64,000 nt of DNA, from contig CP020563.1 of assembly GCA_002082585.1 (NCBI GenBank), forward strand, positions 6,008,001 through 6,072,000. Direction: 5' to 3'. This document shows positions 10,991 to 38,781 of this stretch, piece after piece. The notes beneath the pieces were generated by a model. The model was not told the origin of the DNA. It did no database searches and saw only the letters and a program-made list of their open reading frames with translations. The stretch's first letter is position 1, and each line of letters opens with the position of its first letter. This DNA comes from Kitasatospora albolonga. Lineage in GTDB: Bacteria; Actinomycetota; Actinomycetes; Streptomycetales; Streptomycetaceae. A program made the position numbers and the translations under genes.

Positions 10991-11197
10991 CTATGAATTC
11001 GAGGCAATTCGGGTGCGAGGCCGGATATCGATCCAATGAGTTTCTATGTAATCGATGCAGGCGGTTCTCCCGTTCGGGCCGAAAGCGATTTCCCAGCCCG
11101 CCGGAACCTCTGCGAACCCGGGCCAGAGGCTATTCTGATCGTTATCGTTCCGCAGCACCAGAAAAGTGCCTTCCGGGTCGTCGAACGGATTCCCCAT
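10991..11197 (-). CDS. MbtH-like NRPS accessory protein
   Basis: A 68-residue MbtH-family protein, which binds NRPS adenylation domains and is often needed for their folding or activity. The family signature is visible: [16 protein letters not shown], the conserved Trp pair in [15 protein letters not shown], and the C-terminal [12 protein letters not shown]. The ATG has GGAGG five bases upstream. It is the first gene of the leftward unit, diverging from the NRPS unit across a 256-base intergenic region. Its codon use is less GC-rich than its neighbours (ATA, ACT, CAT, AAT). It is the only MbtH in the window, so it presumably serves all six adenylation domains. Confidence 0.95.
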
Positions 11198-11453: not shown

Positions 11454-12464
11454 GTGTCGATCATCGAAGCGGAAAGGAAACGGGCTCAGCTCACGGCTGC
11501 GGACATCTACAACTCGGCAGTAGCTTCGTGGGCCATCGCCGCCGCCTGGGAGGTGGGCGTTCTTGACGAGATATACAACACCGGAACGGTCGACGGGGAT
11601 GAGCTCGCCCAGAAGCTGGAGCTGGACCCGATCGCCGCGCGCGGCATGTATCAGGCGCTCGCGGCCGTTCGGATCGTGACCCGGGAAGACGGCAAGATCA
11701 GCGCCGGACCGCTCTTTGACGAAGTGAACCACTACCGGTCCTACTTCCACTGGCTGAGCCGTGGCTGCTCGGGGCTCTACACGGAAATGCCGTCCGTACT
11801 GCGGCAGGCCAACCGCGTCGGTGACGACTTCTACCGGCGTGATGCCAGGGCTATCAGCTACGCCTGCCGGGAGCTGACCACCTTCTCCTTCGACCCGGCG
11901 TTCTGGACCGCCCTGGAGCGCGTCCCGTTCGACTTCTCCGTGGTCGCCGACCTCGGGTGCGGCAGCGGCGAGCGCCTGATCCAGGTCGCCCGCAGATACC
12001 CGCACGTCCGCGGCCTGGGCATCGACATCGCCGAGGCGGCCGTCAGGATGACCACCGAGGAGGTGGCGCGCAACGGCCTGTCCGACCGGATCACGGCGGT
12101 GCTGGCCGACGCGCGCGGTCTGCGGACCCACCCCGCCTTCGCGGAGGTCGAGGTCCTCACCTGCTTCATGATGGGCCACGACTTCTGGCCCCGGGAGAGC
12201 GCCGTCGAGCGGCTGCGCACGCTCCGCGAACAGTTCCCGAACGTCCGCCGGTTCCTGCTCGGCGACGCCACCAGGACCGTCGGCTACGCCGACCACGAGA
12301 TCCCGCTGTTCAGCCTCGGCTTCGAGTCCGCCCACGACCTGATGGGCCAGTACATCCCCACCATCGACGAGTGGCACGGTGTCTTCGCCGAGACCGGCTG
12401 GACGCTCGTCGGCGAGGAGAAGATCAGCTCTCCCGCGGCCTCGGTCGTCTTCGAGCTGGAATGA
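11454..12464 (+). CDS. MppJ-like 2-oxoacid C-methyltransferase
   Basis: SAM-dependent methyltransferase of 336 aa that strongly resembles MppJ, the mannopeptimycin enzyme converting phenylpyruvate to beta-methylphenylpyruvate. Shared segments recalled from MppJ include AISYACRE, ADLGCGSGERLIQ (SAM site), CFMMGHDFWPRE and RRFLLGDATRTVG. The His of MMGHDFW and of SAHDLMG correspond to iron ligands in MppJ. The N-terminal ~100 residues are the dimerisation domain of plant-type O-methyltransferases. The start is GTG with GGAGGAG six bases upstream. It opens the biosynthetic operon and overlaps the next gene by ATGA. A beta-methylated 2-oxoacid, after transamination, would suit the Phe-like starter module. 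DptI/GlmT-type methylation of 2-oxoglutarate is the alternative. Confidence 0.85.
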   Translation: MSIIEAERKRAQLTAADIYNSAVASWAIAAAWEVGVLDEIYNTGTVDGDELAQKLELDPIAARGMYQALAAVRIVTREDGKISAGPLFDEVNHYRSYFHWLSRGCSGLYTEMPSVLRQANRVGDDFYRRDARAISYACRELTTFSFDPAFWTALERVPFDFSVVADLGCGSGERLIQVARRYPHVRGLGIDIAEAAVRMTTEEVARNGLSDRITAVLADARGLRTHPAFAEVEVLTCFMMGHDFWPRESAVERLRTLREQFPNVRRFLLGDATRTVGYADHEIPLFSLGFESAHDLMGQYIPTIDEWHGVFAETGWTLVGEEKISSPAASVVFELE

Positions 12465-13864
12465 CATCAGCCGTCATGAGCCAATCCACCCTGGTCAGAC
12501 GGCAGCCCGCGACGACCGGCTCCGGCCGGCTCGGACCCCTGCTGGACGGACTGATCCGGCACCACCACGTCCCCGGTGCCCAGCTCGCCGTGCTGCACCC
12601 CTCCTGGGGCCCCCTCGGGATCACCGTGGAGGCGGGAGAGGAGCGGTACGGCGGCGGGAGCCCGGTCACCCGCGGCTCCCGCTTCCCCGTCGGCTCCCTC
12701 ACCAAGGCTTTCACCTCGCTGCTCCTGCTGACCCTGGCCGACGACGGCGACATCGAACTGGACACCCCCATCGGCGACCAGTTCGACGAGCCGAGCACCT
12801 GGGCCGCCGACGCGGCGCGGGTGACACCCCGGCAGCTGCTGACGCACACCGGCGGACTGCCCGGAAGCCACTTCGAGGCCGAGGAGACCATCGGACGGGC
12901 CCGGTATCTCGCCCGGGCGACCGCCGTTCCGGCGGTCTGCGCCCCCGGAGCGGCCTTCTCCTACTCCAACGTCGGCATGGTGGCGGCGGGCCACCTCGCG
13001 GAGCTGGTGCTGGGCATGGACTGGGAGGAGGCGCTGCGCACCGTCGTCCTGAACCCGCTGGGCATCGTCCCGGCCTGGGTCACGGGTCCCGCCGGAGCGC
13101 ATGTGCCGGGGCACACCGCACGGCCCGAGCAGGGTGACGCGGTGCCGGTCGCCCAACTGCTCCCACCGGCCCAGGCCCCGGCCGGTGCGCTGGCCCTCAG
13201 CGCCTGGGACCTGCTCAGGTTCGGCCGGCTGCTGACCGATGCCCCGGTGCGCCCGAGCGGCGGGCTGCTGCCGCCGGTGAGGGTCACCGAGGCCATGAGG
13301 CGGCTCCAGCCGGGCACCGACGCGTTCGGGCTCGCCGACGGCTGGGGGCTGGGAGTGGCCGGCTACCGGGAGCCCGGCGGACCCGTCTGGGTCGGTCATG
13401 ACGGCACCGGGGACGGCACCTCCTGTCACCTCCGGGTCGACCCGTACGAAGGCACGGTCGTGGCCCTCACCACCAACGCGGGCACCGGGCTGGCCCTGTG
13501 GGAGGACCTGGTGGGGGAGCTCCGCCAGGAGGGTCTGGGGATCGCCCACCACCCCTTCGCCCGGCCGCGCGGCACGGCGCCGCCCGCGGAACCCTCCCTG
13601 CTCGCCCGCTGCGCCGGGACCTATGTCAACGGCGGTACCTCCTACGAGTTCGTCCAGGACGCCGGAGGGCTCCGGCTGGACCAGGGCGGCGCGGCCTACG
13701 CCCGGATCACCCTGCGGGCCGACCTCGCCTTCTCGGTCGTCGAGCTCACGACCGACAGGACGGCCTACTCCGGCCGCTTCCTGGCAGATCCCGGTACGGG
13801 GCGGATCGACCGCATGCAGCTCAGCGGGCGCCTCGCGGCGCGTGACGGACACCAGCACGGCTAA
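12461..13864 (+). CDS. PBP-type (beta-lactamase fold) trans-acting thioesterase/peptide cyclase
   Basis: Serine hydrolase of 467 aa with the class C beta-lactamase/PBP4 fold. The catalytic SxxK is SLTK in FPVGSLTKAF (~residue 85), the YxN motif is YSN in AAFSYSNVG, and the third motif is HDG in WVGHDGTGDG. A ~100-residue lipocalin-like C-terminal domain follows. There is no signal peptide, so it should act in the cytoplasm. Stand-alone enzymes of this family (SurE, MppK, DsaJ, WolJ) release and macrocyclise NRPS peptides whose last residue is D. Here the last module ends in an epimerase domain and no thioesterase is fused, which fits. The start overlaps the methyltransferase stop (ATGA); ATG 12476 is an alternative. 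Confidence 0.85.
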   Translation: MTSAVMSQSTLVRRQPATTGSGRLGPLLDGLIRHHHVPGAQLAVLHPSWGPLGITVEAGEERYGGGSPVTRGSRFPVGSLTKAFTSLLLLTLADDGDIELDTPIGDQFDEPSTWAADAARVTPRQLLTHTGGLPGSHFEAEETIGRARYLARATAVPAVCAPGAAFSYSNVGMVAAGHLAELVLGMDWEEALRTVVLNPLGIVPAWVTGPAGAHVPGHTARPEQGDAVPVAQLLPPAQAPAGALALSAWDLLRFGRLLTDAPVRPSGGLLPPVRVTEAMRRLQPGTDAFGLADGWGLGVAGYREPGGPVWVGHDGTGDGTSCHLRVDPYEGTVVALTTNAGTGLALWEDLVGELRQEGLGIAHHPFARPRGTAPPAEPSLLARCAGTYVNGGTSYEFVQDAGGLRLDQGGAAYARITLRADLAFSVVELTTDRTAYSGRFLADPGTGRIDRMQLSGRLAARDGHQHG

Positions 13865-13872
13865 TCACCGTC

Positions 13873-13904
13873 CGGTGCGCCCGGCTCTTCGGCCGGGCGC
13901 ACCG
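13873..13904 (+). terminator. Intra-operon 13-bp perfect hairpin
   Basis: A perfect 13-bp stem (13873-13885 with 13892-13904, starting CGGTGCGCCC) has a six-base loop TCTTCG and fills the 75-base gap between the trans thioesterase and the first NRPS gene. There is no U-tract. It may attenuate transcription, stabilise a processed mRNA end, or set the low thioesterase/NRPS ratio. Confidence 0.55.
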
Positions 13905-13939
13905 AACGGGCCTCAGCAACCGAAAGGGCAGGTCACTCC

Positions 13940-16900
13940 ATGTCGCACGAGGCGGCTTCCTCGACCGAACGGCACCAGCGCGGCACCGCCGAAGGGCCTG
14001 AGAAGCAGATGGCGGGCGATACCCTCGCCAGGATCGCCGACACGCTGCCTCGTCTGCTGCGCCGACAGGTGGCGCGAGACCCCGAAGCTCCGGCACTCGT
14101 CTGCGGCGCCGAGACCCTTTCCTATGCCGAACTGGACCTGCGGACCAACCGGTTGGCCCATCTGCTGATCGACCGCGGCACCGGTCCCGGGGACCTGGTC
14201 GCCCTGCACCTCCAGCGCGGCACCGACTTCGTCCTGTCGGCCCTGGCCGCCGTCAAGGCCGGTGCGGCCTTCCTGCCGGTGGACCCCGCCTACCCGGCCG
14301 AACGCGTGGCGTACGTGCTCGGCGACGCCCGGCCGCAGACCGTGGTGACGGCGGACGCCGCACCGCGGGGCACCCCGGACCCGGCCACCGTCCTCACCGT
14401 CGGCCCGGACGGGGTCACCGCCCTGGCGGCCGACCGGCCCGGCGAGGACCCCGTCGCCGCCGGGCGGGTCCCGGCCGGGCAGCCGGGCGACGCGGCCTAC
14501 GTCATCTACACCTCCGGCTCCTCCGGACGCCCCAAGGGCGTGGTCGTCCCCCACAACGGCCTGGCCTTCCTGGCCGAGCAGCACGTCAGCCGGCTCGGCG
14601 CGGGCCCGGGGTCCCGGGTGCTGCAGTTCGCCAGCCCCAGCTTCGACGCCTCCGTCTTCGAACTGTCCATGGCCCTGCTCACCGGCGGCACCCTGGTGCT
14701 CGCCGCCCAGGACCGGCTGGAAGTGGGACCGGCCTTCGCGAAGCTGCTCACCGAGGAGCGCATCACCCATGTGACCCTGCCGCCCGCCGTCCTGGCCACC
14801 CTCCCCGACAAGGCCGTCCCGCCGGGCGTCACCCTCGTCACGGCGGGGGAGGCATGTTCGGCACGGGTGGCCGCACGCTGGGCCACCGACCGGCTCATGG
14901 TCAACGGCTACGGGCCGACCGAGACCACCGTGTGCGCGACCATGAGCGCCCCCCTGCCCGGGGACGGCACGACCCCCGACATCGGCGGCGCCGTGGTGGG
15001 CACCCGGGTCCATGTACTCGACGACCGGCTCCGGCCGGTGTCCGACGGGGTCCCGGGCGAGCTGTACGTGGCGGGCGAAAGCCTGGCCATCGGCTATCTG
15101 CACCGGCCCGCCCTGACCGCCGAGCGGTTCGTCGCCGACCCGTTCGGCCCGCCCGGCAGCCGCCTCTACCGCACCGGTGACATGGTCGAGCGCTCCGGGG
15201 ACGGGACCCTGCGCTACCGGGGGCGCTCCGACGACCAGGTCAAGATCCGGGGATTCAGGGTCGAGCTCGGCGAGGTGGAGGCGGCGGCCCTCACCCACCC
15301 GGACGTCGCCGAGGCCGCCGCCGGGGCGCGCGACGACGACCGGGGCCACCGGCGGCTCGTGGTGTACGTACGGGCCGAGGCCGGGCGCCCGGCACCGGAC
15401 CGCGCGGCACTCGCCGCCCATCTCGGCGCCACCCTGCCCGGGTTCATGCTGCCCTCGGCCGTGGTACCGGTGAGCCGCTTCCCGCTGGGGCCGACCGGCA
15501 AGGTGGACCGGGGACGGCTGCCCGCACCGGACTGGCGGGCCGCCGCAGGCGCCCATGTGCCCGCCGCCGACCGGACCGAGGAGACCGTCGCCGCCCTCTG
15601 GGCGGAGGTCCTCGGCACCGATGTCCCCGGCATGGACGACGACTTCCTCGACCTGGGGGGCGACTCGCTCCTCGCGGTCCGGGTCCTGGCCCGGCTGCGG
15701 GCGGAGCTCGGCGTCCGGCTGAGCCCACGGGACCTCTTCACGGCCACCACCCCCAGGGGCCTGGCGGACCTGGCCAGGAACGCGCGCGACACCGGTGCCG
15801 CGGCCGGGCCCGGGCCCGCGCCCGTAGCGGACGACCACGACGCCGCGCCCATGTCCTTCGCACAGGAGGGCCTGTGGTTCCTGCACGACACCGCCCCGGA
15901 ACAGGTCGGCTACGGGGCCGCGGTGGGGATCGAACTGCGGGGCGCCCTGGACGAGCCCGCCCTGCGGTCCGCGCTGCGCGAACTGACGGCACGCCACCCG
16001 GTCCTGCGCACCACCTTCCGCGCCCGGGAGGACCTGGACGGCCGGCACCCGCACGGGGCGCAGGGCACGCAGCTCGTCCATCCCCCCACCGACCCGGTCC
16101 TCGCCGTCGCCGATCTCCGGGACCTGCCCGCCGACCGGGCGGCACAGGAGCGTGAGCGGCTGGTCGCCGAGGAGACCGCCCGGTCCTTCGACCTCGTCGA
16201 AGGACCGCTGCTGCGCACCCTGCTGCTCCGTCTGCCCGGGGACCACCACCTGCTGGTCCTCAACCAGCACCACATCGTCACCGACGGCTGGTCGGCCAGA
16301 CTGCTGACCGGCGAACTGCTCGGCCTGTACGAGAGTGCCGCGGCGGGCGAGGAGTTCACCCGCCCCGACCCGGCCCCCGCCCCGTACCAGCGGTACGCGC
16401 GCATCCAGCGCGAGCACGCCCGGACCGGGGCCTGGGACGAGGACCTCGCCTACTGGCGCCGCGCCCTGGCGGAGCTGCCCACGCTCGACCTTCCCACCGA
16501 CCGCCCCCGCTCGGCCGCCGTCCGGCCCGGCGGAGCGCTGCACCGTTTCACGCTCCCCGCCGACGTCGTGACCGGCCTGCGCGCGCTCTCGCGGGAGCGC
16601 CGGGCGACGCTGTTCACCACCCTGCTCGCCGGGGTGCACACGGTCCTCGCCCAGCACTCCGGACAGGACGACTTCGCTCTGGGCACCGCCGCCTCGGGGC
16701 GGGGCGACGGCGACTGGGAGCGCACCCCGGGGTTCTTCGTCAACCTCGTACCGCTGCGCAACCGCCTGGACGCGCGGCGCCCCTTCGCCGACTTCCTGGA
16801 CGCCGTACGGGACACCACCCTGGAGGCCCTGGAGCATGCCGCCGTGCCCTTCGACCGGCTGGTCGACGCGCTGCACGTGCGGCGGGAGCCCGGCCGGATG

Positions 16901-19900
16901 CCGCTGGTCCAGACGGTCGTCTCCTACCAGGAGCCGCTGCTGACCCCGCACCGCCGCGCCGGACTGGAGGTGGCGGAGGCCGAACTCCCCCGCTCCACAG
17001 CCCGGTTCGACCTGCTCTTCGAGTTCTGGGACCACGGGCAGAAGCTGGCCGCCGACATCGAGTACAGCACCGCGCTCTTCGACGCCGCGACCGTCGAGAG
17101 GCTCGCCGACCATCTGACCGCCCTGCTGCGCGCCGCCGTCGCCGCCCCCGCCACCCCGGCCGGCCGGCTGCTCCCGGCCGGTGCGGGCACGGCCGAGGAG
17201 CAGGCGGCCGCGCGCCGGTGGAACGACACCGCCGTGGACTACCCGCGCGACCGGTGTGTGCACGAGCTGTTCGAGGAGGTCGCCGCAGCCCGCCCGGACC
17301 AGGTGGCACTGGTCTTCCAGGACGACACGCTCACCTACGGCGCGCTCGACGCCCGTGCCAACCAACTGGCACACCGGCTCGCCGAGGAGGGCATCGGCCG
17401 GGGCTCGCTCGTCCCCGTCTGCGCGGAACGCGGCCCCGATCTGGTCACCGGGCTCCTCGCGGTCCTCAAGGCGGGCGGCGCCTACGCGCTCCTCGACATG
17501 GGGCTGCCCCGGGAGCGCCTGCATGCCATGCTCCAGGACCTGGACACCCCCGTCGCCCTCGTCCAGGACCATCTCGGCGAGACCCTGCGGCGGGCCTGGC
17601 CCGCCGACCGGCCGTGCACCCTGCTCCCGCTCGGCGCCGACGGGGCGACCGACCGGCAGCCGACCGGCAGTCCGGGGGCCGCCGCCACGGCCACCGACCC
17701 GGCGACCGTGATGTTCACCTCGGGCTCGACAGGCCGCCCCAAGGGAGTGGTCGCCCCCCACCGGGCGCTCGTGCGCACCTTCGTCGGCACCGAGTTCGTA
17801 CGCTTCGGACCCGACGAGGTGATCCTCCAGTCCGCCCCCGTCTCCTGGGACGCGTTCCTGCTGGAGCTGTTCGGGGCGCTGCTGCACGGGGCCCGCTGTG
17901 TGCTCCAGCCGGGGCCCGTACCGGAGCCCGAGGCCATCGCCGAGCTGGTCGAGCGGCACGCGGTCACCACCCTGTGGCTGTCCTCGAGCCTGTTCAACGT
18001 CATGGCCGAGGAGTACCCCGGCGTCTTCGACCGGCTGCGCCAGGTGATGACGGGCGGCGAGGCGGTCTCCGTCGAGCACGCCGCGCGCGTACTGCGGCGG
18101 GTCCCGGGGCTGTGCCTGGTCAACGGCTACGGGCCGGTGGAGAGCATGGTGTTCGCCACCAGCCACCGGGTGCGTCCGGCGGACCTGGAGCGGGCGTCCG
18201 TACCGATCGGGCGGCCGATCGCCAACACCCGCGTGTACGTCCTGGACACCGAAGGCCGTCCGGTGCCCGACGGCATACCGGGGGAGCTGTACATCGGCGG
18301 CGACGGCCTGGCGACCGGCTACCTCCACCAGCCCGGACTCACCGCCGAACGGTTCGCCCCCGCGGCCTTCGGCCCGGACGAACGGCTCTACCGGACCGGC
18401 GATCTGGCCCGTCGGCTGCCCACGGGGGAGCTGGAGTTCCTCGGCCGGGCGGACGACCAGGTCAAGATCCGAGGTTTCCGTATCGAGCCGGGAGAGATCG
18501 TCCGGGCGCTGCTGCGCCACCCCGGGATCGCCGATGCCGCCGTCACCGCCACGGCGGCCGGGACGGACCGCCGTCTGGTGGCCCACGTGGTGCCGAAGAC
18601 ACCGGGCACCGCCCCGGACGCCCCGGAACTGCGCCTGCTGCTCGGCGAGTCGCTGCCTTCGTACATGGTGCCCGCGGCCTTCGTGACGCTGGACGCGCTG
18701 CCGCTGACCGCCGCGGGAAAGCTGGACCGGGGGGCGCTGCCCGTACCGGCGGCCGACGCCGGCCGCCCGGCCCGGCCCTATGTGGCCCCGCGCGACGACC
18801 GCGAGCGGCTGCTCGCCGACCTCTGGTGCCGGCTGCTGGACGTGGAGCGCGTCGGCGTCGAGGACAACTTCTTCGAGCTCGGCGGCGACTCCATCCTGAC
18901 CATGCGGGTGGCGGCGCGGGCCCGGGCGGAGGGCTTCGCCCTGCGCTCCGGCGACGTGCTGCGCCACCAGACCGTCGCGGCGCTGGCGGCGGCGGGCAGC
19001 TGGGTGCGGGACACCGGGCGGGACGCGGAGCAGTCGGCCGTCGAGGGCGACGTACCGCTGTCCCCGATCCAGCGCTGGTTCTTCGGCACCGCGACCGGCC
19101 GGGTGGAGCACTTCGACCAGACCGTACGGGCCGAGCTCGACGCGGCGGTGGACGGGGACGCGCTGGAGACCGCGCTGCGGTCCCTGACCACGCACCACGA
19201 CGCACTGCGCCTGCGGTTCACGGAGGCGGACGGCCGCTTCGCCCACAACGCCCCCGAGGAACAGGGGAGCCTGCTGCGCCACGAGGATCTCTCCCGACTC
19301 CCCGCGGACCAGCAGAACGCGCGGATCGCGGAGGTGGCCACCGCTGAGGCCGCGTTCGACCTGGCCACCGGGCCGCTGCTGACGGGCGTGCTGTTCCGGC
19401 TCGGTGCCGCCCGCCGCCCGCACCTGGTCCTGGCCGCCCACCACCTGGTGGTCGACGGGGTCTCCTGGCGGATTCTGCTGGAGGACCTGGCCACCGCGTA
19501 CGGGCAGGCCGTGGCCGGGGAGCAGGTGGCCCTCGGCCACAAGACGACCTCCTTCCGCTCCTGGGCGACGGACCTCGCGGCGCGGACCCGCGCGGGAGCC
19601 TTCGAGGCCGAGCGCGGTCACTGGGAGGAACTTCTGGCCGGGGACGCGCCGGGGCTGCCGCGCGACTTCCAGGGCCGTAACACGGCCGGTTCGCTGCGCA
19701 CCCTCACCGTCCGCCTCGGCCGGGCGGAGAGCGAGGCCCTGCTGCGTGAGGTACCGGCGCTGTACCGGGCCGGGGCCGACGACGTCCTGCTGGCCGCGCT
19801 GGGTGCCGCGCTCGCCGACTGGACGGGCCGGGACCGCTTCCTGGTGGATCTGGAGGGGCACGGGCGCGAGGAGGAGCACACCGCCGCCGGACTGTCCCGC

Positions 19901-22900: not shown

Positions 22901-23647
22901 GGCTACCGGCGCAGCCCCGGCAGGACCGCCGAGCGCTTCGTCGCCAGCCCCTTCGGAGCTCCGGGCAGCAGGCTGTACCGCACCGGAGACCTGGTCCGCC
23001 GCCGCACCGACGGCGCACTCGAATACATCGGCCGCACCGACGACCAGGTCAAGGTGCGTGGCTTCCGGGTCGAACTCGGCGACGTGGAGAGCGCGGTGAT
23101 ACGGCACCCGGACCTCACCGCCGCCGCGGTGGTGCTGGTCGGGGGGAGCCTGGTGGCGCACGTCGTGCCCGTCGACGGGGCGGCCCCCGAGGAGGCCCAG
23201 ATCCGCACCTTCCTGTCCGGGCTGCTGCCCGAGCACATGGTGCCCGCGCGCGTGGTGCGCACGGCCGCGCTGCCGCTCACCCCCAACGGGAAGGTCGACC
23301 GCAAGGCGCTGCGGGAGGTACCGGCCCCAGCGCCCGGCACCTCCGGGTACGTGGCGCCCCGCACCCCCACCGAGCAGGCGCTCGCCGGGATCTGGAGCGA
23401 GGTGCTGGGCGTGGAGAAGGTCGGCGCCACCGACGACTTCGTGACGCTCGGCGGCGATTCGATCCGCAGCCTCGCGGTGATGGCACAGGTCCGTACGGCC
23501 TTCCGCGTGCGGCTCACCCCGCGTGAGGCGCTGGGCGCCGGGACCATCGCCGATCTGGCCGCGGTGGTGGAGGAGAAGGTTCTGCGCGATCTGATGCGGC
23601 AGGCGGCGGAGAGCGGATACGGCGGGAACGAGGCACGAGGAGCATGA
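13940..23647 (+). CDS. NRPS 1: modules 1-3, A-T / C-A-T-E / C-A-T
   Basis: Non-ribosomal peptide synthetase of 3235 aa. Approximate domains: A1 40-540, T1 at LGGDSL 572; C2 from 637 (HHIVTDG 777), A2 1095-1600, T2 1650, E2 from 1706 (HHLVVDG 1833, EGHGRE 1971); C3 from 2169 (HHALLDG 2302), A3 2628-3120, T3 3170. There is no C domain before A1, so module 1 is the starter. C2 starts like LCL domains and C3 like DCL domains, matching the E domain between them. Specificity residues by hand alignment to GrsA: A1 DAFTVAGVCK (Phe-like), A2 DALWMGGVFK (Val/aliphatic-like, uncertain), A3 DLTKVGEVGK (Asn, a good match). It overlaps NRPS 2 by ATGA. Confidence 0.95.
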
Positions 23648-26600: not shown

Positions 26601-29600
26601 CGGCGGTAAAATCGACCGGCGCGCTCTCCCGGCCTCCGCCGACGAGGAGCCTCCGGCCGGCCATGTCCCGCCCAGCACCCCGGTGGAGCGCACGCTGGCC
26701 GGGATCTGGTCCGAGCTGCTGGGCGTGGACCGCGTCGGTACCGAGGACAACTTCTTCGCCCTCGGCGGCGACTCGATCCTCAGCATCCAGGCCGTCTCCC
26801 GCGCCCGGGCGGCCGGGCTGCGCCTGAGATCCAAGGACATCCTGGTCAAGCAGACCATCGCCAGGATCGCCCTCGGCCTCACCCCGGAGCAGGCCGGGAA
26901 CGCGGGCGTCACGGCCTGGCGGGGAGGCCCGGCTCCGCTCGGCCCGATCCAGCTCGGTCTGCTGGCCGGCCGCGACGAGATCCCCCGCTACTCCATGTCG
27001 CTGCTGCTGGAGCTGGCCGGGGGCACGGACACCGGAGCACTGCGGGAGGCGGTCGCGGCGCTGGTCGCCCACCACCCCGCACTGCGCACCCGCTTCTCCC
27101 GGCGGGACGGCGACTGGGTCCAGGAGCCGGTGGAGCGGGAGGCCGCCGAAATCTTCAGCCACCACGACCTGTCCGCCCTCGGACCGGACGCGTACGAGTC
27201 CGCGGTGCGGAAGGCCGCCGCTGCCGCCCGGGCCGAACTCGAACCGTACACCGGGCCCCTGCTGCGGGCGGTCCTGGTCACCGGCGGCCCGGGCCTGCCG
27301 TCCCGGCTGCTGCTGACGGCCCACCACCTGGTGGTGGACGGCGTCTCCTGGCGCATCCTGCTGGACGACCTCACACAGGCGTACGAACAGCGCGCGGCGG
27401 GCCGGCCGATCGCCCTGGACCCGGCCACCACTCCGTTCGCCGAGTGGGCGAGCCGGCTCGCCGACCATGTGCGGGGCGGCGCCCTGGACGGTGAACTCCC
27501 TCACTGGACCGCGGTCACCGAGGGGGAACCCTGCCGCATCCCCCTCGACCACGACGGCGACAACACCGCCGGGTCCGTCGAGCGGGTGGACTTCTCGCTC
27601 ACCCGCGAGGAGTCCGAGGCCCTGCTGCGCCAGGTGCCCGCCGCCTATCTGACCCGGATCGACGATCTGCTGCTGACCGCACTGGGCGACGTCCTCGCCC
27701 GGTGGACCGGCCGGAACCGGGTCGTCATAGGACTGGAGGGGCACGGCCGCGAGGAGATCCTCGACGGGGTGGACCTCTCCCGCACCGTCGGCTGGTTCAC
27801 CGCCGCCCACCCCGTGGCGCTCGACCTGCCGGACACGGGGGACTGGGGCGACCGGCTGAAGGCCGTCAAGGAACAGCTGCGCGCCGTACCCGGCCGAGGA
27901 GTGGGGTACGGCGCACTCGCCGCGCTCACCCGGCCGAGCACCCTGCCGGAGCCGTGGAAGCCGCCGGTCGGCTTCAACTACCACGGGCAGCTGGACAACA
28001 CCTTCACACGCGGCTCGCTCTACCTCGCCCACCTGGGCGATCCGGGCCGGCAGCTCGACGACAGCCATCCGCGGGAGCACGCGATCGACGTGGTGGGAGC
28101 CGTCCAGGACGGCGTACTCACCCTGTCCTGGCACTACTCCCGGGCGCTGCACGACCGGGAGACCGTGGAGCGCCTCGGGCAGGGCATGATGAGCGCCCTG
28201 CGGGAGATCGTCGGACACTGCGCCGCACCGTCGGCGGGAGGGCGCACCCCTTCCGACTACCCGCTGGTCCGGCTGGACCAGCCCGCCGTGGACCGCCTGG
28301 CGGGCAACGGCCGGGGCGTCGCCGACGTCCTGCCGCTGACACCCCTCCAGAGCGGCATGCTCTTCCACACCCTCGTGGACGCCGACAGCACCGCCTATGT
28401 GGACCAGCTGGCCCTGCGACTGGACGGCGTACGCGAACCGGACGCGCTGGCCGCCGCCTGGCGCGAAGTCTTCGGGCGCACCGCGACGCTGCGGTCCACC
28501 GTCCACTGGGAAGGGCTGCCCGACCCCGTACAGCTGATCCGGAACGACCTGGAGCTGCCCGTCACACTGCTGGACCGGCGCGGGCTGACCGCTGAGCAGC
28601 ACGAGGCGGAACTCGACGAGCTGCTGGCGGCGGACCGCGCGCTCGGCATCGATCTGCGAGAGGGCCCGCTCACCCGGGTGACCTTGCTCCGCACCGCGGA
28701 CGACGCCGTGTATCTGCTGTGGACCTTCAGCCATCTGCTGCTGGACGGCTGGAGCACCGTACGGGTCTTCGACGACGTCCTGGAGTGCTACGCGGCGGCC
28801 ACCGCGGGCCGCACACCTGTGCTGCCGAGCCGACTGCCGTTCCGCGACTATGTGGAGTGGCTCTCGGGCCAGGAACACACGGCCGCGCTCACCCACTGGC
28901 GGGAACTCCTGGGCGGATTCACCGCGCCCAACTCCCTCCCGGTGGACCGGCAGCCCGCGGAGTCGCACCGGTCGCGGGCCACCGGATCGCGGCACTTCGC
29001 GCTCGCCCCGGAGACCGGGCGACGGCTCGCCGACTGGTGCCGGGAGAACCGCGTCACCCTCAGCACCCTGGTGCAGGGCGCCTGGGCGGTCCTGCTGTCC
29101 CGGCACAGTGGCGATGACGACGTGGTCTTCGGCGTCGCCGTCTCCGGCCGCACCCCCGAGGTGCCGGGCATCGAGAGCAGCATCGGCATGTTCGTCAACA
29201 CCGTCCCGGTGCGGGCACAACTGACCGATACCGACAAGCAGTTCGCCGTCTGGCTGCGCGAACTCCAGGCGGTCCGGGCCGAGACCGCCGCGCACGACCA
29301 TCTCGCGCTGAACGACATCCAGCGCTGCGCGGACCTGGCCCCGGGCGACCGGCTCTTCGACAGCATGGTCGTCTTCGAGAACTACCCCATCGACAACAGC
29401 GCCGCCGGCCGCGACGGGGTGGGGGTGAGCGTGCTGCGCGCGACCGATGTCAGCACCCTGCCGCTCACCCTGAGCAGTCACTACGACACCACACTGCGCT
29501 GCGAACTCCTCTACGACCCGCAGCTGTTCGACGCCGCCACCGTCGGCCGTCTCGCCGCGCGGCTGACCGCGCTCCTCGACGGCGTGGCGGACGACCCCGG

Positions 29601-32600
29601 GATCGGCCTCGGCGCTCTGCCCTGGGTACCGGCGGACGAGCGGCGCGCCCTGCTCGGCGCGTGGAACGACACCGCCATGCCGCGCCGCACCGAGAGCCTT
29701 GTGCAGGAGCTGTTCGACACGCAGGTCCGCCGGGCCCCCGACGGGATCGCGGTCCTGGACGCCCACGGCGGCGAGTCGCTGACCTTCCGCGCCCTGGACG
29801 AGCGGGCCGGCCTGCTCGCCCACCGGCTGCGCGCCGCAGGCGCCGGCCGCGGCCGACTGGTCGGGCTGCACCTGGAACGCGGCACCGATCTCGTGACCGC
29901 TGTCCTCGCCGTACTCAGGACGGGCGCCGCCTATGTGCCGCTGGACCCCGAATACCCCCGGGAGCAGCTGGAGTTCATGCTCGAGGACGCCGCACCGGCA
30001 GCCGTGCTCACCCAGGAGTCCCTCGCCGGACGGCTGCCGGAGGCCGAGGCCGAGACCCTGATCCTCGAGACCGCCCTGAGCCCCTCTCCCGAGGTCCCGC
30101 CCACCGCACCACCGGTCGGGGCCGAGGCCGACGACCCGGTCTACGTCGTGTACACCTCGGGGTCCACCGGACGGCCCAAGGGCGTCGTGGTCACCCACCG
30201 CAACCTGGTGCACATCGCGGCGGCCTGGGACGAGCTCTACGACCTCACCGCCAAGAAGCTCCGCTTCATGTCGGTCACCAGCCTGTCCGTCGACCTCTTC
30301 TTCGCGGACCTGCTGCGGTCGGTCTTCTTCGGCGGCTCCATCGTGGTCGTTCCCACCGAGCTGGTCACCGACCCCAGGCGGCTGCTCGACCTCATCGACC
30401 GTACCGGTGGCACCGCCATCGAGCTGGCGCCCTCGCTGGCCAAGACCCTGGTCGAGGAGGTGGAGGCCGACGGCCGGCGGCTGCCGCCACTGGACCTGAT
30501 GTCGGTCGGCTCCGAGGCATGGCACGTGGAGGACTGCCGGGAACTCCTCGCCCGCGTCCATCCGTCGACCATGGTGGTCAACGCCTACGGAGCCACCGAG
30601 GCCACCGTCGACTCCACCGTGCTGGTCCTCTCCTCCGAGCTGCTGGAGCAGTACACCACCTACGTGCCGATCGGACGGCCCCTGGGCAACACCACCGTGC
30701 ACCTCCTGGACGACCGGGGCGCCCTGGTGCCCGTCGGCGTCCCCGGCCATATCCACATCGGCGGCGACGGCGTCAGCGCGGGCTACCGGAACCGCCCCGA
30801 ACTGACCGGCCGGCACTTCGTCCCCGACCCCTTCACCCCCGGCGGGAGGCTCTACCGGCCCGGCGATCTGGCCCGCCGCCGCGCCGACGGCAGCCTGGAG
30901 TTCATCGGCCGGGCCGACCACCAGGTCAAGATCCGCGGCTTCCGGATCGAACCCGGCGAGGTCGAAAGCGCCCTCACCGCACTGAAGGAGATCGGCGAGG
31001 CCGTCGTGGTCGCCCGCCGCGACCGGGGCCGCGACCGCCTGATCGGCTACGTCGTCCCCGCGGCCGAGGGCGCCACCGTGGACCTCTCCGCGGTCCGGGC
31101 CGGGCTCGCCGCCGTACTGGCCCCCGCGATGGTGCCCTCCGCCTTCGTCGTCCTGGAGCGGATACCCCGCCTCCTCGGCGGCAAGGCCGACCGCCGCTCG
31201 CTGCCGGAACCGCCCGCCGACCAGCGCCCCGAGAAGGAGTACGTCGCCCCCCTGGGACACCTCGAACGGCTGCTGGCCGGCATCTGGTCGCAGGTCCTGG
31301 GCGTGCCGCTGGTCGGGGCCGAGGACAACTTCTTCGAGCTCGGCGGTGATTCCCTGCTCAGCATCCGGGTCATCGGCCGTCTGCGCGCCGCCGTCGGCAC
31401 CGACCTCTCCCCACGGGTCCTGTTCACCGCGCCCACCGTGCGGTCCCTGGCCGCACGGGTCGCCGGGGCCACGGCGGGCGGCCCGCCCGGGGACGGTGTC
31501 GTCCCGGCCGGCCGGGACGGGGCGCCGCCGCTCTCCTTCGGTCAGCAGCGGCTCTGGTTCCTGAACCAGGTCGGCCCGGCGGGCGCCGAGTACAACTCCC
31601 CGCTGGGCCTGCGGATCACCGGCCCGGTGGACGGCGACGCCCTGGAGGCGGCCCTGGCCGGCCTGGTCGACCGGCACGAGGCGCTGCGCACCGTCTTCCG
31701 GGCCGAACAGGGTTCGCCCCGGCAGCTCGTCCGGCCCCCGGGAGCGCCCTTCCCCCTGATACGTACCGATCTGTCGGAGCTGCCGGACGATGTTCGCGAG
31801 CAGCGGCTGCACGCCCTGGCAGCCGAGGACGGCTCGCACCGGTTCGACCTGGAATGGGGGCCGCTGCTGCGGGCGCGGCTGATCCGGCTCGCGGACGACG
31901 CGCACGTACTGACCCTGTGCCTGCACCACATCGTCACCGACGGCCGGTCGGCCGGCATCATGCTGCACGACCTGGCGGCGCTCTACCGCGCCCGGCTGGA
32001 CGGGACACCGGCGGACCTGCCCGCGCTCCCCGTACAGTTCGCGGACTACGCGGTCTGGCAGCGCCGCCGCTGGGAAGCGGACGGAGAGCGGCAACTCGCC
32101 TACTGGCAGCGGCAGCTGGCCGGTCTGGAACCCCTGGAGCTGCCGACCGACCGGCCGCTGCCCCCGGTGCGGCCGACCACGGGCGCGGAGGTGGAGTTCA
32201 CCGTGGGGCCGGAGGTCGCCGAGCGGCTGAAGGAGATCAGCCGGGACCATGGCGCCACCCTGTTCATGACGCTCGTGGCCGGTACCCAGGTGCTGCTCGC
32301 GCACTACTCGGGCCAGGACGACATCGCGGTGGGCACCGTGTCCGCCGGGCGGGACCGCGCCGAACTGGCCGGAGTGGTCGGCTTCTTCGTCGACACCCTG
32401 GTGCTGCGCTCGGCCGTGGACTGGGAGGCGGACTTCGGCGGCTTCCTCAGCCAGGTGCGCGAGACCGTCAACAGCGCCTTCGACCACGCGGACGTGCCTT
32501 TCGACCGGATCGTCGACGCGTTGCGCCTCGACCGTGATCCGAGCCGTACACCGCTCTTCCGGACGATGGTCGTCCTCCAGGACGCGCCCGGCACCCTGCC

Positions 32601-35600
32601 ACCGCTCGGCCCCGGCACCGTCGAGGAGTTCGGTCTCCCGGCCGCCGGCGCGCCCTTCGACCTCACCTTCCAGTTCCAGGAGACGGAAGGCGGCATCGAC
32701 GCGGCCCTCCAGTACAGCACCGGCCTCTTCGACGCCGGTACCGCGCGGCGGATGGCCGCCGCCCTGGTGACACTGCTCGGCGCCGTCGCCGACCGGCCCC
32801 GCCGACGGCTGCGCGAGCTGCCCTACGTCCCCGACGAGAGCCCTCGCGCCCCGGCCGACCGGCCCTGGCACGACGAGCCCGCGGACGGCGAGGCGGACAT
32901 CGCACCGCATGTGCTGATGCAGCGCCGCGCCCAGGAGGCACCCGGTGCGGTGGCCGTGGTCGCCGCCGACGGCACGGAGGTCGGCTACGCCGAGCTCGAT
33001 GCCCGTGCCGATGCCCTCGCCCGGCGGCTGGTGGCACACGGCGTACGACCCGACACGCTGGTCGGAGTGTTCGCCGACCGCAGTGTGGAGATGGTGGTCG
33101 GCGCCCTCGCCGTGCTGAAGGCGGGCGGCGGCTATGTGCCGCTGGACCCGCAGTACCCCGCCGACCGGATCGGGGCCATGATCAGCGGAACCGCCGTACC
33201 GCTCGTCCTCGCCCAGCCGCACCTCCAGGACCGGCTGCCGGACGGCGACTTCGCCGTGCTGCCCCTCGACGAGGCCGCCTCCGGCAGCGCCGCCACCGCT
33301 GCGGCGGCACTGCCGGGCGAGCCGGGCGCCCCGTACCGGCAGACGCTGGACCAGATCGCCTACGTGGTCCACACCTCCGGGTCCACCGGCCGCCCCAAGG
33401 CCGTGATGATCACGCACGGAGCGATCGGCCGCGCGGCACGCGTGCTGCGGCGCGCCTGGGGCATCGGGCCGGGCAGCCGGGTCCTGCAGTACGCTCCGGC
33501 GAGCTTCGACGGCGGGGTGTGCGATCTGTTCTGCACGCTCACCGCGGGCGCGACGCTCTGCCTGACCAGCCCCCGCCCCGCCCCCGACCCCGTGGGCGAG
33601 ATCATCAGGACCGGTGCGACCGTGGCGGTCCTGCCCCCGGCCCTGCTCGCCGCCATGGAACCGGAGCGGCTGGAAGGCCGGCCGGTGACCATCGCGGCAG
33701 CCGGTGACGTCTGCCCGCCGGGGCTGGTCCGGGCCTGGTCCGGCGGGCGTGGCTTCTTCAACGTCTACGGACCCAGCGAGGGCACGCTCGTCTCGACCCT
33801 GTGGAGCCCCGCCGGACCGGACGGCCTCGACGACACCGCGATGACCGTGCCCGTCGGCACCCGGCTTCCCGGGGTGGGGCTCTATGTTCTGGACCGCTTC
33901 CTGCGGCCGGTGCCCACCGGCGTACCCGGCGAGCTCTACATCGACGGCCCGGGGCTTGCCCGCGGGTACGCCGGACAGCCGGGGCTGACCGCCGAGCGCT
34001 TCGTCGCCAACCCCTACGGCTCCGCAGGCGGCCGGATGTACCGTACCGGCGACCTGGTACGGCAACGGGCCGACGGGAACCTGGAGTTCGTCAGCCGTGC
34101 CGACAGCCAGGTCAAGGTGCGCGGCCACCGGGTGGAGCCCGGCGACATCGAGGCGGCGCTGATGCGCCGGCCGGGGGTCGCGGACGCGGCGGTCACCGTG
34201 TGGAAGCCGGTCGGCGGCCGGGAGGTGCTGGCGGCCTATGTGGCCCCGGAGCCGGGCGTACGCACCGCCGACATCGACCCCGACGGGCTGAAGGCGGCCA
34301 TCGCCCTGACCCTGCCCGGGTACATGGTCCCGGCCGCCGTCCAGGTCCTCGACGCCCTGCCCCTGGGCACCAACGGCAAGGTGGACCGGCGGCTGCTGCC
34401 CCGGCCCGCCGAGCCCCGGGAGGGCCGCGCGTACACCGCGCCCCGGACCCCCCAGGAGAAGATCCTGGAGCGGGTGTGGGCCGAGACCCTCGGCCTGGAG
34501 CGGGTCGGCGTCGAGGACCGGTTCTTCGACCTCGGCGGCGACTCCATCCTGAGCATCCAGGTGATGGCCCGTGCCCGCCGGGCCGGGCTGCGGCTGGACA
34601 CCCAGGACATCTTCCTGCACCAGACGATCGCGGAGCTGGCCGCGGTCGGCGAGTTCGTCGGCGACACGGCGGGCGACGCCCGCCCGCCCGCCGTCGGGCC
34701 GGTGCCGCTGACCCCGGTGCAGCGCTGGTTCTTCGCCACCCACGACGTGCCCCACCACTTCAATCAGTCGATGCTGGTGGAGCTGCGGGGACGGGCCGAC
34801 GAACAGGCCCTGCGCACCGCCCTGGAGGCGCTGATCGAGCACCATGACGCGCTCCGCATGCGCTTCACCCGCGACGGCGACCGCTGGGACCAGCAGAACC
34901 CGCCCCACACCCCGGGCAGCGCCGGCCTGTTGCGGGTGGTGGACGCCACCGGCACAGCCGAGGACGCCCTCGACGGCCTGATGGAGCGGGAGGCCACCCG
35001 GGCCCAGGCGGGCTTCTCGCTCGCCGAAGGCCCCCTGCTCGCGGCGGTCCTGTTCGACCTGGGCGAGGAGCGGCGCGGACGGGTCTTCCTCACGGCCCAT
35101 CATCTCGTCGTGGACACCGTCTCCTGGAACATCCTGCTGGACGACCTGGAAGTGGCCTACACCCAGGCGGTCGCCGGAGCCCCGGTGGATCTGGGGCCCC
35201 GCGGCACCACCTTCCAGGAGTGGTCGACCCGGCTGAGCGCCCACACGCGCCAGGGCGGCCTGGACCACGAGCTCTCCTACTGGCGGGCCGTGGACACCGA
35301 CCTGCCGCTGCCCAGGGACTTCGCGGGCACCCCGAAGGCGGCCGACGGCCGGCAGGCCGAGATCCTGCTCGGCCCCGAGGAGTCCGTGCTGCTGACGGAC
35401 CATGCCCCGACCGTCTACCGCACCCGGGTCGAGGAGGTGGTGCTCAGTGCCCTGGCCCGGACGCTGGCCCGCTGGACCGGACACGGTGCCGTCGCCGTCG
35501 ACCTGGAGGGCCACGGCCGCGAGCGGCTGCTCGACGGCGTCGACCTCTCCCGCACCGTGGGCTGGTTCACTTCGGTGCACCCGGTCCGCCTGGACGCTCC

Positions 35601-36018
35601 GGAGGGCGCCGGGTGGCGCGAGCTGATCCGCGCCGTACGCAGACAGCTCAGGGCCGTCCCCGGCAAGGGCATGGGGTACGGGCCGCTGCGCCATCTGCGC
35701 GAGGGTCTCCCCGGCGCCGGACCGGGCGGACCGGACCCCGAGGTGGTTTTCAACTTCCTCGGCCGGCACCGGACCCGGAGCCGCTCCGACGACGGCCTCT
35801 ACCACGCACTCCACGGAGCCCTGGGCGAGGACCTGAGCCCGGACGACCGCACCAGCCACCTGCTGGAGATCGTCGGCGGCATCAAGGACGGCCGGCTCGC
35901 CTTCACCTGGTACTACTCATCAGCCGTCCACGAACCGCGGACAATCGCCCGTCTCGCGCGGGACTTCGAAGAGGCCCTGCGGGAGATCGCCGCCGAGTGC
36001 GCGGAGGCCACGCGATGA
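23644..36018 (+). CDS. NRPS 2: modules 4-6, C-A-T-E / C-A-T / C-A-T-E, no thioesterase
   Basis: Non-ribosomal peptide synthetase of 4124 aa. Approximate domains: C4 from 50 (HHSVMDG 176), A4 503-990, T4 1040, E4 1098-1560; C5 from 1564 (SHLLLDG 1697), A5 2008-2515, T5 2566; C6 from 2629 (HHIVTDG 2761), A6 3093-3580, T6 3630, E6 3688 to the end (HHLVVDT 3819, EGHGRE 3955). C5 is of DCL type; C4 and C6 are of LCL type. Hand-read specificity residues: A4 DADEAGFVDK and A5 DLAEMVAVDK (acidic pockets, so basic residues), A6 DGCVAAVLVK (unassigned). The protein ends right after the E domain with no TE or reductase, so release must occur in trans. ATG 23650 is an alternative start. Confidence 0.95.
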
Positions 36019-37334
36019 CGGACGTACGCCAGGAGGGCACGGGAGAGCCCGCCGCCCGGGCACTCTCCGCTCCGGAGCCCGTCGGCAAGGAGGCCGGGCC
36101 GGAGCTGCCGCTGCGGCGCAACCGCGCCTACCACCTGCTGTGGATCGGTACCACCTCGTCCGAGGTCGGCCTGAACCTCTCCAACATCGCCTTTCCGCTG
36201 CTGGCCCTCGCGGCCACCGGTTCCCCCGGCGTCGCCGGTGCTGTCGGGGCGGTGAACGCCCTGGCCCAAGTGGCGGTCGGACTGCCGGCGGGGGCACTGG
36301 TCGACCGCTGGGACCGCAAGAAGATCATGCTGAGCTGTCTCTTCGCCCGGATGGCGGCCCTGGGCTGCCTGACGGCGGCCGTCGCGGCCGGTTACCCGGC
36401 GGTGTGGCTGATGCTGCTGACCGCCGCGGTCGCGGGCGGCGCCTCCAGCCTCTTCGACCCGGCCGAGCACGCCTCGCTGCCCATGGTGGTCACCAGGAGC
36501 CAGCTGCCGACGGCGCTCTCGGTGAACACCGCGCGGATGCATGTGGGACAGCTGGTCGGCACCTCGGGCGGCGGCTTCCTCTTCGGCATCGGCAGAGCCG
36601 TGCCCTTCCTGGCCGACGCCCTCGCCCACCTGATCGCGATGGTTTCCATCTGGTTCGTCGACCTGCCCGCGCGGGAGCGCAGCCGCAGGCCGATGTCGCT
36701 GATCCACCGGGATATCGCCGCCGGCTTCGGCTTCCTCTGGAAGCAGAGGTTCCTGCGCACCTCCACCCTGGTCCTGCTGGTCCTCAACTTCCTTTTCCAG
36801 GTGCTCTTCCTGGTCACCGTCGTGGCCGCCGAACGCGGTGGCGCGGCGCCCGGACAGATCGGCGTCATGGCCGCCATGTTCGGGGTCGGGGGACTGCTGG
36901 GCGCCCTGGTCGCGCCGAGGATCTACCACGCGGTCAGCCCGCGCCGGGCCATCCTCGGCGTCATCTGGATTCTCGCGGTCCTGGTGCCGCTGATGGCACT
37001 CACCGAGGAGGTCATGGTCTGGGGGCTGCTGCTCGCGGGTATGTCGTTCATGGCTCCCACCGCCTACACCGTTCTCGGTACGCAGCAGATCCTGATGACG
37101 CCCGACGACATGCGTGGGCGCCTCAGCTCGGCGACCAACCTCTTCAGCGGCGGCGCCCAGGCCGCCGGGGCCGCCGGGGGCGGCCTGCTCGCGCAGTGGC
37201 TGACCGGGGCGCAGGCCATGCTCTGCTGCGCCGCGGGTCTCGCCCTGCTGGCACTCGTGGCGACCGCGGCCCGTGGGCTGCGGCTGCCGCCCGCCGTCGG
37301 GGAACAGCCGACCGGACCTGCCGGAGAGGACTGA
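36015..37334 (+). CDS. MFS exporter of the peptide cluster
   Basis: Major facilitator superfamily transporter of 439 aa with about twelve hydrophobic helices. The loop after helix 2 carries the family motif as [11 protein letters not shown]. The fold resembles the enterobactin-exporter-like MFS_3 group common in secondary-metabolite clusters. Its ATG overlaps the NRPS 2 stop (ATGA), making it the last gene of the biosynthetic operon and the likely product exporter. The frame remains open far upstream inside NRPS 2, but only the overlapping start makes sense. The first ~35 residues are hydrophilic and cytosolic. Confidence 0.9.
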
Positions 37335-37339
37335 GCCAT

Positions 37340-38771: not shown

Positions 38772-38781
38772 GGATCATGTT

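What the first reader, a model, noticed from the sequence alone, without database searches (positions are those of the whole stretch)
11454..37334. Predicted strictly alternating L/D cyclic hexapeptide released by a stand-alone PBP-type thioesterase
Seen: six NRPS modules with E domains in 2, 4 and 6, LCL/DCL condensation domains at matching places, no TE at the C terminus, and a cytoplasmic SxxK/YxN/HDG serine hydrolase overlapping the operon. Known: SurE/MppK-type enzymes cyclise peptides with a D C-terminal residue. Inference: the product is cyclo(L-D-L-D-L-D), with residue 1 as nucleophile and residue 6 (D) as acyl donor. The combination of predicted residues (Phe-like, X, Asn, basic, basic, X) does not match a cyclic hexapeptide I can name.
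Basis: partly seen in the sequence, partly recalled or inferred. Interest (0 to 1): 0.85.

Follow-up and report, generated by a model that had tools for sequence, protein, structure and literature searches.

The report
Faulknamycin-like cyclic hexapeptide gene cluster
This Streptomyces stretch is an assembly line that most likely builds a ring of six amino acids of alternating handedness, closed by a stand-alone enzyme; the same layout is already known from the cyclofaulknamycin cluster, so the interest lies in a probably new molecule, not in a new mechanism.

Summary
Two NRPS genes carry six modules (A-T | C-A-T-E | C-A-T || C-A-T-E | C-A-T | C-A-T-E) with matching LCL/DCL condensation domains and no C-terminal TE. 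A SurE/Ulm16-type serine hydrolase lies directly upstream. A cyclic L-D-L-D-L-D hexapeptide is the best reading (about 0.8). The plan is not new: the published cyclofaulknamycin (flk) cluster has the same domain order, and its cyclase FlkO has been assayed. New here are the cluster's extent (about 1302-40538), a syntenic cluster in another genome, and sharper residues: Phe-like, probably beta-methyl-Phe (MppJ homologue); D-Val-like; Asn; D-unknown with an acidic pocket; a module-5 code identical to flk A4, whose product residue is capreomycidine, here without an E domain (so L); D-unknown. An arginine-hydroxylase-type dioxygenase and a PMT-like gene suggest further tailoring. The open-licence papers searched showed no compound that I recognised as this one; the product is unproven. 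New member of a known kind, with probably new chemistry.

The parts
1302..2285 (-). ArsR-type regulator (flk has an ArsR-family FlkW)
   Evidence: HTH_20/ArsR hits; 58% orthologue in G556 cluster
2427..4459 (-). two-component pair 1: LuxR-type regulator 2427-3158; kinase ending at 3155, start uncertain (open frame up to 4789, but its first part overlaps the permease gene)
   Evidence: Pfam; syntenic in G556, 66% and 47%; overlap and start codons
4521..7027 (-). ABC transporter pair (permease 4521-6134, ATPase 6131-7027)
   Evidence: Pfam (permease given there only to 4786); G556 orthologues 67% over all 537 residues and 76%
7332..8102 (-). DUF4097 protein, probable lipoprotein (N-terminus by eye)
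   Evidence: Pfam 26.8 bits; 41% orthologue in G556
8185..9915 (-). PMT-family (PF13231) membrane glycosyltransferase, possible glycosylation of the product; no counterpart in the G556 stretch
   Evidence: Pfam 72 bits; no NCBIfam hit; no hit in the 59-kb G556 stretch at E 1e-8
9975..10949 (-). Fe(II)/alpha-ketoglutarate dioxygenase of the arginine-hydroxylase type (TauD1)
   Evidence: 205 bits to VioC, 217 to 6daw; HTE...H and DxD aligned (residue roles recalled); NCBIfam GntD 328 bits (cut-off 345), VioC 280 (cut-off 418.6)
10991..11197 (-). MbtH-like protein (68 aa)
   Evidence: reading frame; 53% orthologue at the same place in G556; family assignment by motif, recalled; NCBIfam gave no hit
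11454..12464 (+). MppJ-type C-methyltransferase (phenylpyruvate beta-methylation expected)
   Evidence: 402 bits to MppJ 4kib over residues 7-336 of 336; 73.5% orthologue in G556
12461..13864 (+). stand-alone PBP-type thioesterase / peptide cyclase (length of the database protein, 462 aa, fits start 12476)
   Evidence: PF00144; Ulm16 213 bits, SurE 190 bits over both domains; motifs
13940..23647 (+). NRPS-A: A1-T1-C2-A2-T2-E2-C3-A3-T3
23644..36018 (+). NRPS-B: C4-A4-T4-E4-C5-A5-T5-C6-A6-T6-E6, no TE
36015..37334 (+). MFS exporter, overlaps NRPS-B
   Evidence: Pfam; 71% orthologue in G556
37461..39426 (.). two-component pair 2 (kinase 37461-38771 -, regulator 38782-39426 +)
   Evidence: Pfam; syntenic in G556, 55% and 75%
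39516..40538 (-). second TauD-family dioxygenase (TauD2), substrate unknown
   Evidence: Pfam 139 bits; 71% orthologue at the other end of the G556 cluster

Best explanation
The cluster (about 1302-40538) makes a head-to-tail cyclic hexapeptide of the faulknamycin type. Module 1, which lacks a C domain, loads an aromatic residue, probably beta-methyl-Phe made from phenylpyruvate by the MppJ-type enzyme. Module 2 adds a Val-like residue and its E domain turns it D. Module 3 adds Asn. Module 4 adds a residue of unknown kind (pocket D239/E278/D331, likely cationic), made D. Module 5 adds L-beta-hydroxy-Arg or L-capreomycidine, supplied by TauD1. Module 6 adds an unidentified residue, made D. The stand-alone PBP-type TE takes the hexapeptidyl chain from T6 onto its SxxK serine and closes the ring with the amine of residue 1. 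The MFS protein exports it and the PMT-like enzyme may glycosylate a hydroxyl. Shown here: gene set, domain order, condensation subtypes, homologies, codes, synteny. Inferred: every chemical step and the product. The 0.8 is for the cyclic L-D-L-D-L-D hexapeptide and its release; the single residues are less certain.
For: Domain order and E/LCL/DCL pattern. TE related to the assayed cyclases SurE and Ulm16 across both domains. Presumed FlkO proteins (P0010 50%, P0011 48%) rank 9th and 10th, after the window's own protein, its clade of six at 62-71% and one at 49%. TE-family genes have NRPS sequence beside them in 40 of 42 loci given to the call (L016-L044, L046-L058; L050 repeats the place of L022; the two without, L032 and L033, are shortened by contig ends), against 0 of 5 weaker matches of the hydrolase elsewhere in this genome (L002-L006) (with the low-complexity filter on, one search had 26 of the first 29). 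No TE family on NRPS-B. Syntenic cluster in G556. flk has the same module order and makes cyclofaulknamycin (PMC8399532); FlkO was assayed in vitro (PMC11735501). A5 code DLAESGAVDK is identical to flk A4 (Table 3). A1 DAFTVAGVC agrees with flk A1 in 7 of 9 positions; A2 DALWMGGVF agrees with flk A3 (Val) in 6 of 9.
Against: No product, expression or enzyme data. I could assign neither the A4 nor the A6 code. In flk the capreomycidine code is at module 4, with an E domain; here the same code is at module 5 without E, so the on-line ring formation reported for faulknamycin (PMC10367076, passage) may not apply. The only VioD homologue over cut-off in this genome lies in a streptothricin-type cluster 2.6 Mb away, and the G556 genome has none over cut-off, so free capreomycidine is not clearly supplied. 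Linear iso-faulknamycin was isolated from the flk strain. FlkO accepts only small D residues at the C terminus; whether this enzyme fits residue 6 was not tested. Module 1 has no C domain, and an unseen starter is not excluded.
Confidence: 0.8

Rival explanations
1. Same cyclic hexapeptide, but residue 5 is unmodified Arg (or Orn/Lys), and TauD1 hydroxylates another residue or acts after release.
For: The published prediction for code DLAESGAVDK was 'Arg, Orn, Lys' (PMC8399532 Table 3). TauD1 is below the cut-off of all five NCBIfam models it matches. None of the 27 loose VioD-model matches in this genome lies in the window; none over cut-off in G556.
Against: The flk domain with the identical code feeds a capreomycidine residue, and flk too has a VioC homologue and no VioD-type gene in its cluster. 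TauD1 keeps the aligned metal-site and guanidinium-site residues of VioC (roles recalled).
Confidence: 0.35
2. Residues 4 and/or 5 are enduracididines, as in mannopeptimycin, with TauD1 as the MppO-like beta-hydroxylase and PMT as mannosyltransferase.
For: TauD1 scores best against GntD, an L-enduracididine beta-hydroxylase model (328 bits, cut-off 345). MTase is MppJ-like. A PMT gene is present.
Against: No MppR-type (ADC) or class I/II aminotransferase family among the cluster genes scanned with Pfam. The only ADC-family match in the genome is 5.7 Mb away with 39 bits, which is over that family's cut-off of 29.8; its neighbours were not read. MppP and MppQ were not searched genome-wide.
Confidence: 0.1
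3. The hydrolase acts mainly as a hydrolase or editing enzyme and the released product is linear.
For: Iso-faulknamycin (linear) was isolated with the cyclic form from the flk strain, and the first faulknamycin report found only the linear form.
Against: [quoted passage not shown] Iso-faulknamycin begins with Thr, not with the module-1 residue, which fits opening of a formed ring. The terminal E domain matches the D-acyl requirement.
Confidence: 0.1

Closest known systems
(Cyclo)faulknamycin cluster flk of Streptomyces albus J1074 (PMC8399532)
   Same: Same module order with E in 2, 4 and 6 and no C in module 1; two NRPS proteins of three modules; stand-alone MppK/SurE-type hydrolase; MbtH; VioC homologue without VioD-type gene in the cluster; methyl- and mannosyltransferase genes; two two-component pairs; ABC and MFS; ArsR regulator; code DLAESGAVDK present.
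   Different: That code is at module 5 (no E) here and at module 4 (E) in flk; modules 2 to 6 have other codes at their places; FlkX (type II TE), a DeoR/GlpR regulator and sugar-transporter genes of flk not seen among the genes scanned in 1302-40538; TauD2 and the DUF4097 gene are not named in the flk text read. Known from the paper's text only: no flk sequence was aligned here except the presumed FlkO.
Mannopeptimycin cluster mpp
   Same: MppJ-type methyltransferase (402 bits); MppK-type hydrolase and mannosyltransferase homologues according to PMC8399532.
   Different: No MppR-type gene in the cluster; Asn and Val-like residues have no counterpart in mannopeptimycin (Gly, Ser, Tyr, beta-MePhe, beta-hydroxyenduracididine; PMC11496134, passages). 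Its NRPS layout was not compared: the source paper is not held.
Biffamycin cluster bif (PMC13285481, outline and passages)
   Same: SurE-type cyclisation, alpha-ketoglutarate hydroxylase for a basic residue, mannosyltransferase and MFS exporter.
   Different: Cyclotetrapeptide; SurE is fused to the NRPS there and free-standing here.
SurE, Ulm16, PenA, WolJ, FlkO (PBP-type TEs)
   Same: Two-domain serine hydrolases; for SurE and Ulm16 aligned here with the SxxK, YxN and HDG motifs; N-terminal L plus C-terminal D ring closure as the family rule.
   Different: This enzyme belongs to a separate clade (62-71% to six database proteins, 50% or less to the others listed, 120 of 1028 listed).

Membership tests
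PBP-type (SurE/MppK-type) thioesterase | SxxK, YxN and HDG-type motifs of the serine hydrolase | tested here: met
   GSLTK, YSN, GHDG aligned with nine relatives and with SurE and Ulm16
PBP-type (SurE/MppK-type) thioesterase | Hydrolase domain plus C-terminal lipocalin-like domain | tested here: met
   SurE 6ksu aligned over residues 18-453 of 462, Ulm16 8fek over 18-198 and 230-458; by sequence only, no model was made
PBP-type (SurE/MppK-type) thioesterase | Separate gene next to an NRPS without C-terminal TE and with a terminal E domain | tested here: met
PBP-type (SurE/MppK-type) thioesterase | Gly at the SurE G235 position (pocket for a C-terminal D residue) | tested here: inconclusive
   PAGALALSA here lines up with AAAGGLVGSA in SurE. 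The first G is kept, the second is Ala; which of the two is G235 depends on an assumed 20-residue tag in the chain. P0010 and P0011 have the same G-A
PBP-type (SurE/MppK-type) thioesterase | Head-to-tail macrolactam formation | not testable with these tools
   needs enzyme assay
Faulknamycin-type cluster | A-T-C-A-T-E-C-A-T // C-A-T-E-C-A-T-C-A-T-E with free-standing hydrolase | tested here: met
   against the text of PMC8399532
Faulknamycin-type cluster | VioC-type hydroxylase and the A-domain code of the capreomycidine module | tested here: met
   the code sits at module 5 instead of 4, and TauD1 is below the VioC model's cut-off
Faulknamycin (the same product) | A-domain codes of all six modules as in flk Table 3 | tested here: not met
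   modules 2 to 6 differ at their places (the A6 row was cut off, its Thr is from the text)
Mannopeptimycin-type cluster | MppJ-type C-methyltransferase | tested here: met
Mannopeptimycin-type cluster | Enduracididine genes MppP, MppQ, MppR in the cluster | tested here: not met
   no ADC or class I/II aminotransferase family among the cluster genes scanned with Pfam; ADC family in the genome only at 0.3 Mb; no direct comparison with Mpp sequences

The most novel reading that the evidence does not exclude
The product is a glycosylated, doubly cationic cyclic hexapeptide that merges the mannopeptimycin and faulknamycin lines: cyclo(L-beta-MePhe - D-Val-like - L-Asn - D-cationic - L-beta-hydroxy-Arg or L-capreomycidine - D-X), with sugar added after export. 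Position 4 has been switched to a cationic residue by two pocket differences (D239, E278 here; N239, Q278 in orthologous clusters).
Probability: 0.25. Interest if true: 0.5.

Novelty: new member of a known kind. Interest (0 to 1): 0.36.

Why it matters
Mannopeptimycin and biffamycin, glycopeptides with related tailoring logic, are antibacterial, although cyclofaulknamycin showed no activity in the range tested, so an unassigned member with two possibly cationic positions is a sensible target for isolation. The orthologous clusters, whose A-domain codes are alike except at module 4, are a natural experiment on A-domain specificity. The TE clade widens the pool of candidate peptide cyclases. None of this changes the understanding of how such clusters work.

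Tried and rejected
My first protein for the TE was a wrong frame (36140-37540) and several ORF guesses were wrong frames; these rows were dropped. The MbtH query was in a wrong frame (stop inside) and its absence there means nothing. My note was written before the alignments; the by-eye reading of the module-5 code in it was corrected to DLAESGAVD. The ABC permease was first cut at 4786; one search shows that it runs to 4521, so the kinase start is later than 4789. Capreomycidine supply in trans: a VioD homologue over cut-off exists at C1:3423678, but it sits with a VioC homologue, a KamA-family aminomutase and a carbamoyltransferase, which I read as a streptothricin-type cluster (the name is recalled). 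14 of 199 sampled Streptomyces genomes, this one included, have one over cut-off; of the four genomes tested by handle one has (G413), the syntenic G556 has not. So it is no evidence for capreomycidine here. A-domain swap at module 4: sliding identity shows only a mild dip, so subdomain exchange was not claimed. A literature search for six code strings found no paper, although Table 3 of PMC8399532 holds the A5 code, printed column by column. Searches for a published hexapeptide with these features gave none that I recognised as this one; some searches listed all papers found (11, 7 and 8), one search listed 25 of 83; most were seen as listings only. PMC6022709 concerned N-methyl-Phe peptides (passages). 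The library holds open-licence papers only. Complete flk or mpp sequences were not at hand for alignment; that P0010/P0011 are FlkO is inferred from the organism name of P0010 and the contig length of P0011. No structure prediction was run.
Full report
WHAT IS THERE. The window lies at 6,008,001-6,072,000 of an 8.03-Mb, one-contig genome. On the plus strand, five genes follow each other: an MppJ-type methyltransferase (11454-12464), a PF00144 serine hydrolase (12461 or 12476 to 13864), NRPS-A (13940-23647), NRPS-B (23644-36018) and an MFS exporter (36015-37334). Three of the four junctions overlap or can overlap by four bases; the hydrolase and NRPS-A are 75 bases apart. Motif order gives six modules with E domains in 2, 4 and 6. 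A FastTree of the C and E domains with those of eight other proteins places C3 and C5, which follow E domains, in one clade with other post-E domains, and C2, C4 and C6 in another; two comparison domains of P0355 were mislabelled by my motif rule. Pfam finds no thioesterase domain on either NRPS.

THE CLUSTER IS LARGER THAN THE FINDING. Genome G556 (same family, another genus) carries a cluster with the same genes in the same order around the NRPSs: ArsR-type regulator, two-component pair, ABC pair, DUF4097, dioxygenase TauD1, MbtH, MTase (73.5%), TE (65%), NRPS-A (65%), NRPS-B (66%), MFS (71%), second two-component pair. A second dioxygenase, TauD2, is at the right end in the window (39516-40538) and at the left end in G556 (71% identity), so it probably belongs too. 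The PMT-family gene at 8185-9915 has no counterpart in the G556 stretch. Of the flanking genes queried, the permease at 3-1247 on the left and the PucR-type regulator and two proline-catabolism genes (40732-44785) on the right have no hit in the 59-kb G556 stretch; genes further right were not queried. I therefore put the cluster at about 1302-40538.

THE HYDROLASE. It aligns with Ulm16 (213 bits) and SurE (190 bits) over both the hydrolase and the C-terminal domain. Its own clade has six proteins at 62-71% identity in the 120 listed of 1028 matches; the others listed are at 50% or less, among them P0010 (named S. albidoflavus) and P0011, presumably FlkO. In 392 Streptomyces genomes sampled, 63, this one included, have a match at E <= 1e-50. 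Of the 42 family loci that I gave to, 40 have NRPS sequence beside the gene; the two others are shortened by contig ends, and one place is counted twice (L022/L050). With the low-complexity filter on, 26 of the first 29 had it. Of five weaker matches of the hydrolase elsewhere in this genome (L002-L006) none has. The SxxK, YxN and HDG motifs are conserved. The SurE G235 position could not be fixed with certainty: of the two neighbouring glycines of SurE the first is Gly and the second Ala here, as in P0010 and P0011.

CODES. Using window A1 as reference and motif-anchored alignment (position numbers of the GrsA scheme recalled): A1 DAFTVAGVCK, A2 DALWMGGVFK, A3 DLTKVGEVGK, A4 DADEAGFVDK, A5 DLAESGAVDK, A6 DGCVAAVLVK. 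Orthologous sequences (P0130, P0142, P0238 and G556 for NRPS-B; P0244, P0253 and G556 for NRPS-A) keep A1, A3 and A6, nearly keep A2 and A5, and differ at A4: N239/Q278 in all four A4 sequences instead of D239/E278 (P0238 and G556 have the same code). Table 3 of the cyclofaulknamycin paper gives DLAESGAVDK for flk A4, whose residue in the product is D-capreomycidine, DAWTVAAVCK for flk A1 (beta-hydroxy-Phe in the product) and DAFWLGGTFK for Val. Asn for A3 is recalled. A4 and A6 remain unassigned.

TAILORING. TauD1 aligns with VioC, CmnC, 4m23 (L-arginine beta-hydroxylase) and 6daw at 190-218 bits. The HTE and distal His, the DxD of the guanidinium site and the Gln after FGW are kept; their roles are recalled. 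NCBIfam ranks GntD (328, cut-off 345) above VioC (280, cut-off 418.6), both below cut-off, so an arginine-type hydroxylase is likely and the exact substrate is open. The MTase is MppJ-like (402 bits), which together with the Phe-like A1 suggests beta-methyl-Phe; flk also has a methyltransferase gene but its residue 1 is beta-hydroxy-Phe, so this step is only likely. Whether capreomycidine forms is open: the VioD homologue over cut-off lies in a streptothricin-type cluster, G556 has none over cut-off, and ring formation on the NRPS has been reported for faulknamycin (PMC10367076, passage), whereas deletion of a VioD-type gene elsewhere in the flk strain's genome cut production strongly.

MECHANISM. 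The best reading is assembly L-D-L-D-L-D and head-to-tail release by the stand-alone PBP-type TE. PBP-type TEs join an N-terminal L residue to a C-terminal D residue, and five, FlkO among them, have been assayed in vitro (PMC11735501, section 7 part 1 read). FlkO accepts only small D residues at the C terminus; whether residue 6 here is small is unknown.

KNOWN OR NEW. The text of PMC8399532 (section 15 read in both parts) gives FlkP as A-PCP-C-A-PCP-E-C-A-PCP and FlkS as C-A-PCP-E-C-A-PCP-C-A-PCP-E, with a closely similar set of accessory genes. The alternating plan with free-standing cyclase is therefore published. The predicted residues differ from faulknamycin at five of six positions and differ from mannopeptimycin, and the searches named in Tried and rejected showed no compound that I recognised as this one. 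I rate it a new member of a known kind with a probably new product.

Noticed in passing
23644-36018 (A4 domain, about residues 490-1015): Only module 4 varies strongly in its specificity code among orthologous clusters: D239/E278 here, N239/Q278 in four other sequences.
   Followed up: partly
8185-9915: PMT-family glycosyltransferase gene present here but without counterpart in the otherwise syntenic G556 stretch: gain or loss of a glycosylation step.
   Followed up: partly
L073 (same genome, C1:3412000-3431999): Second cluster with VioC and VioD homologues over the NCBIfam cut-offs, a KamA-family aminomutase, a carbamoyltransferase and an A-domain protein: looks like a streptothricin-type cluster.
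   Followed up: partly
39516-40538: TauD2, a clavaminate-synthase-like dioxygenase of unknown substrate, lies at the opposite end of the cluster in G556.
   Followed up: partly
P0353, P0355 (database proteins): NRPS-B-like proteins of S. gamaensis and S. celluloflavus share codes DLAESGAID and DGSMGAILV at their second and third A domains, so a wider family with an unassigned last residue exists.
   Followed up: no
L062-L064 (G447): Another cluster with two NRPS frames (the first cut by the fetched stretch), a TE relative, a 39% TauD1 relative, MFS, ABC and two-component genes but no MTase or PMT hit: a more distant relative.
   Followed up: partly
23644-36018, C5 domain: Condensation motif begins SH instead of HH in C5 (SHLLLDG); P0130, P0353 and P0355 share the Ser at this place.
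   Followed up: no
L079 (same genome, C1:296371-296988): One ADC-family gene (39 bits, over Pfam's cut-off), the fold family of MppR; neighbours not read.
   Followed up: no
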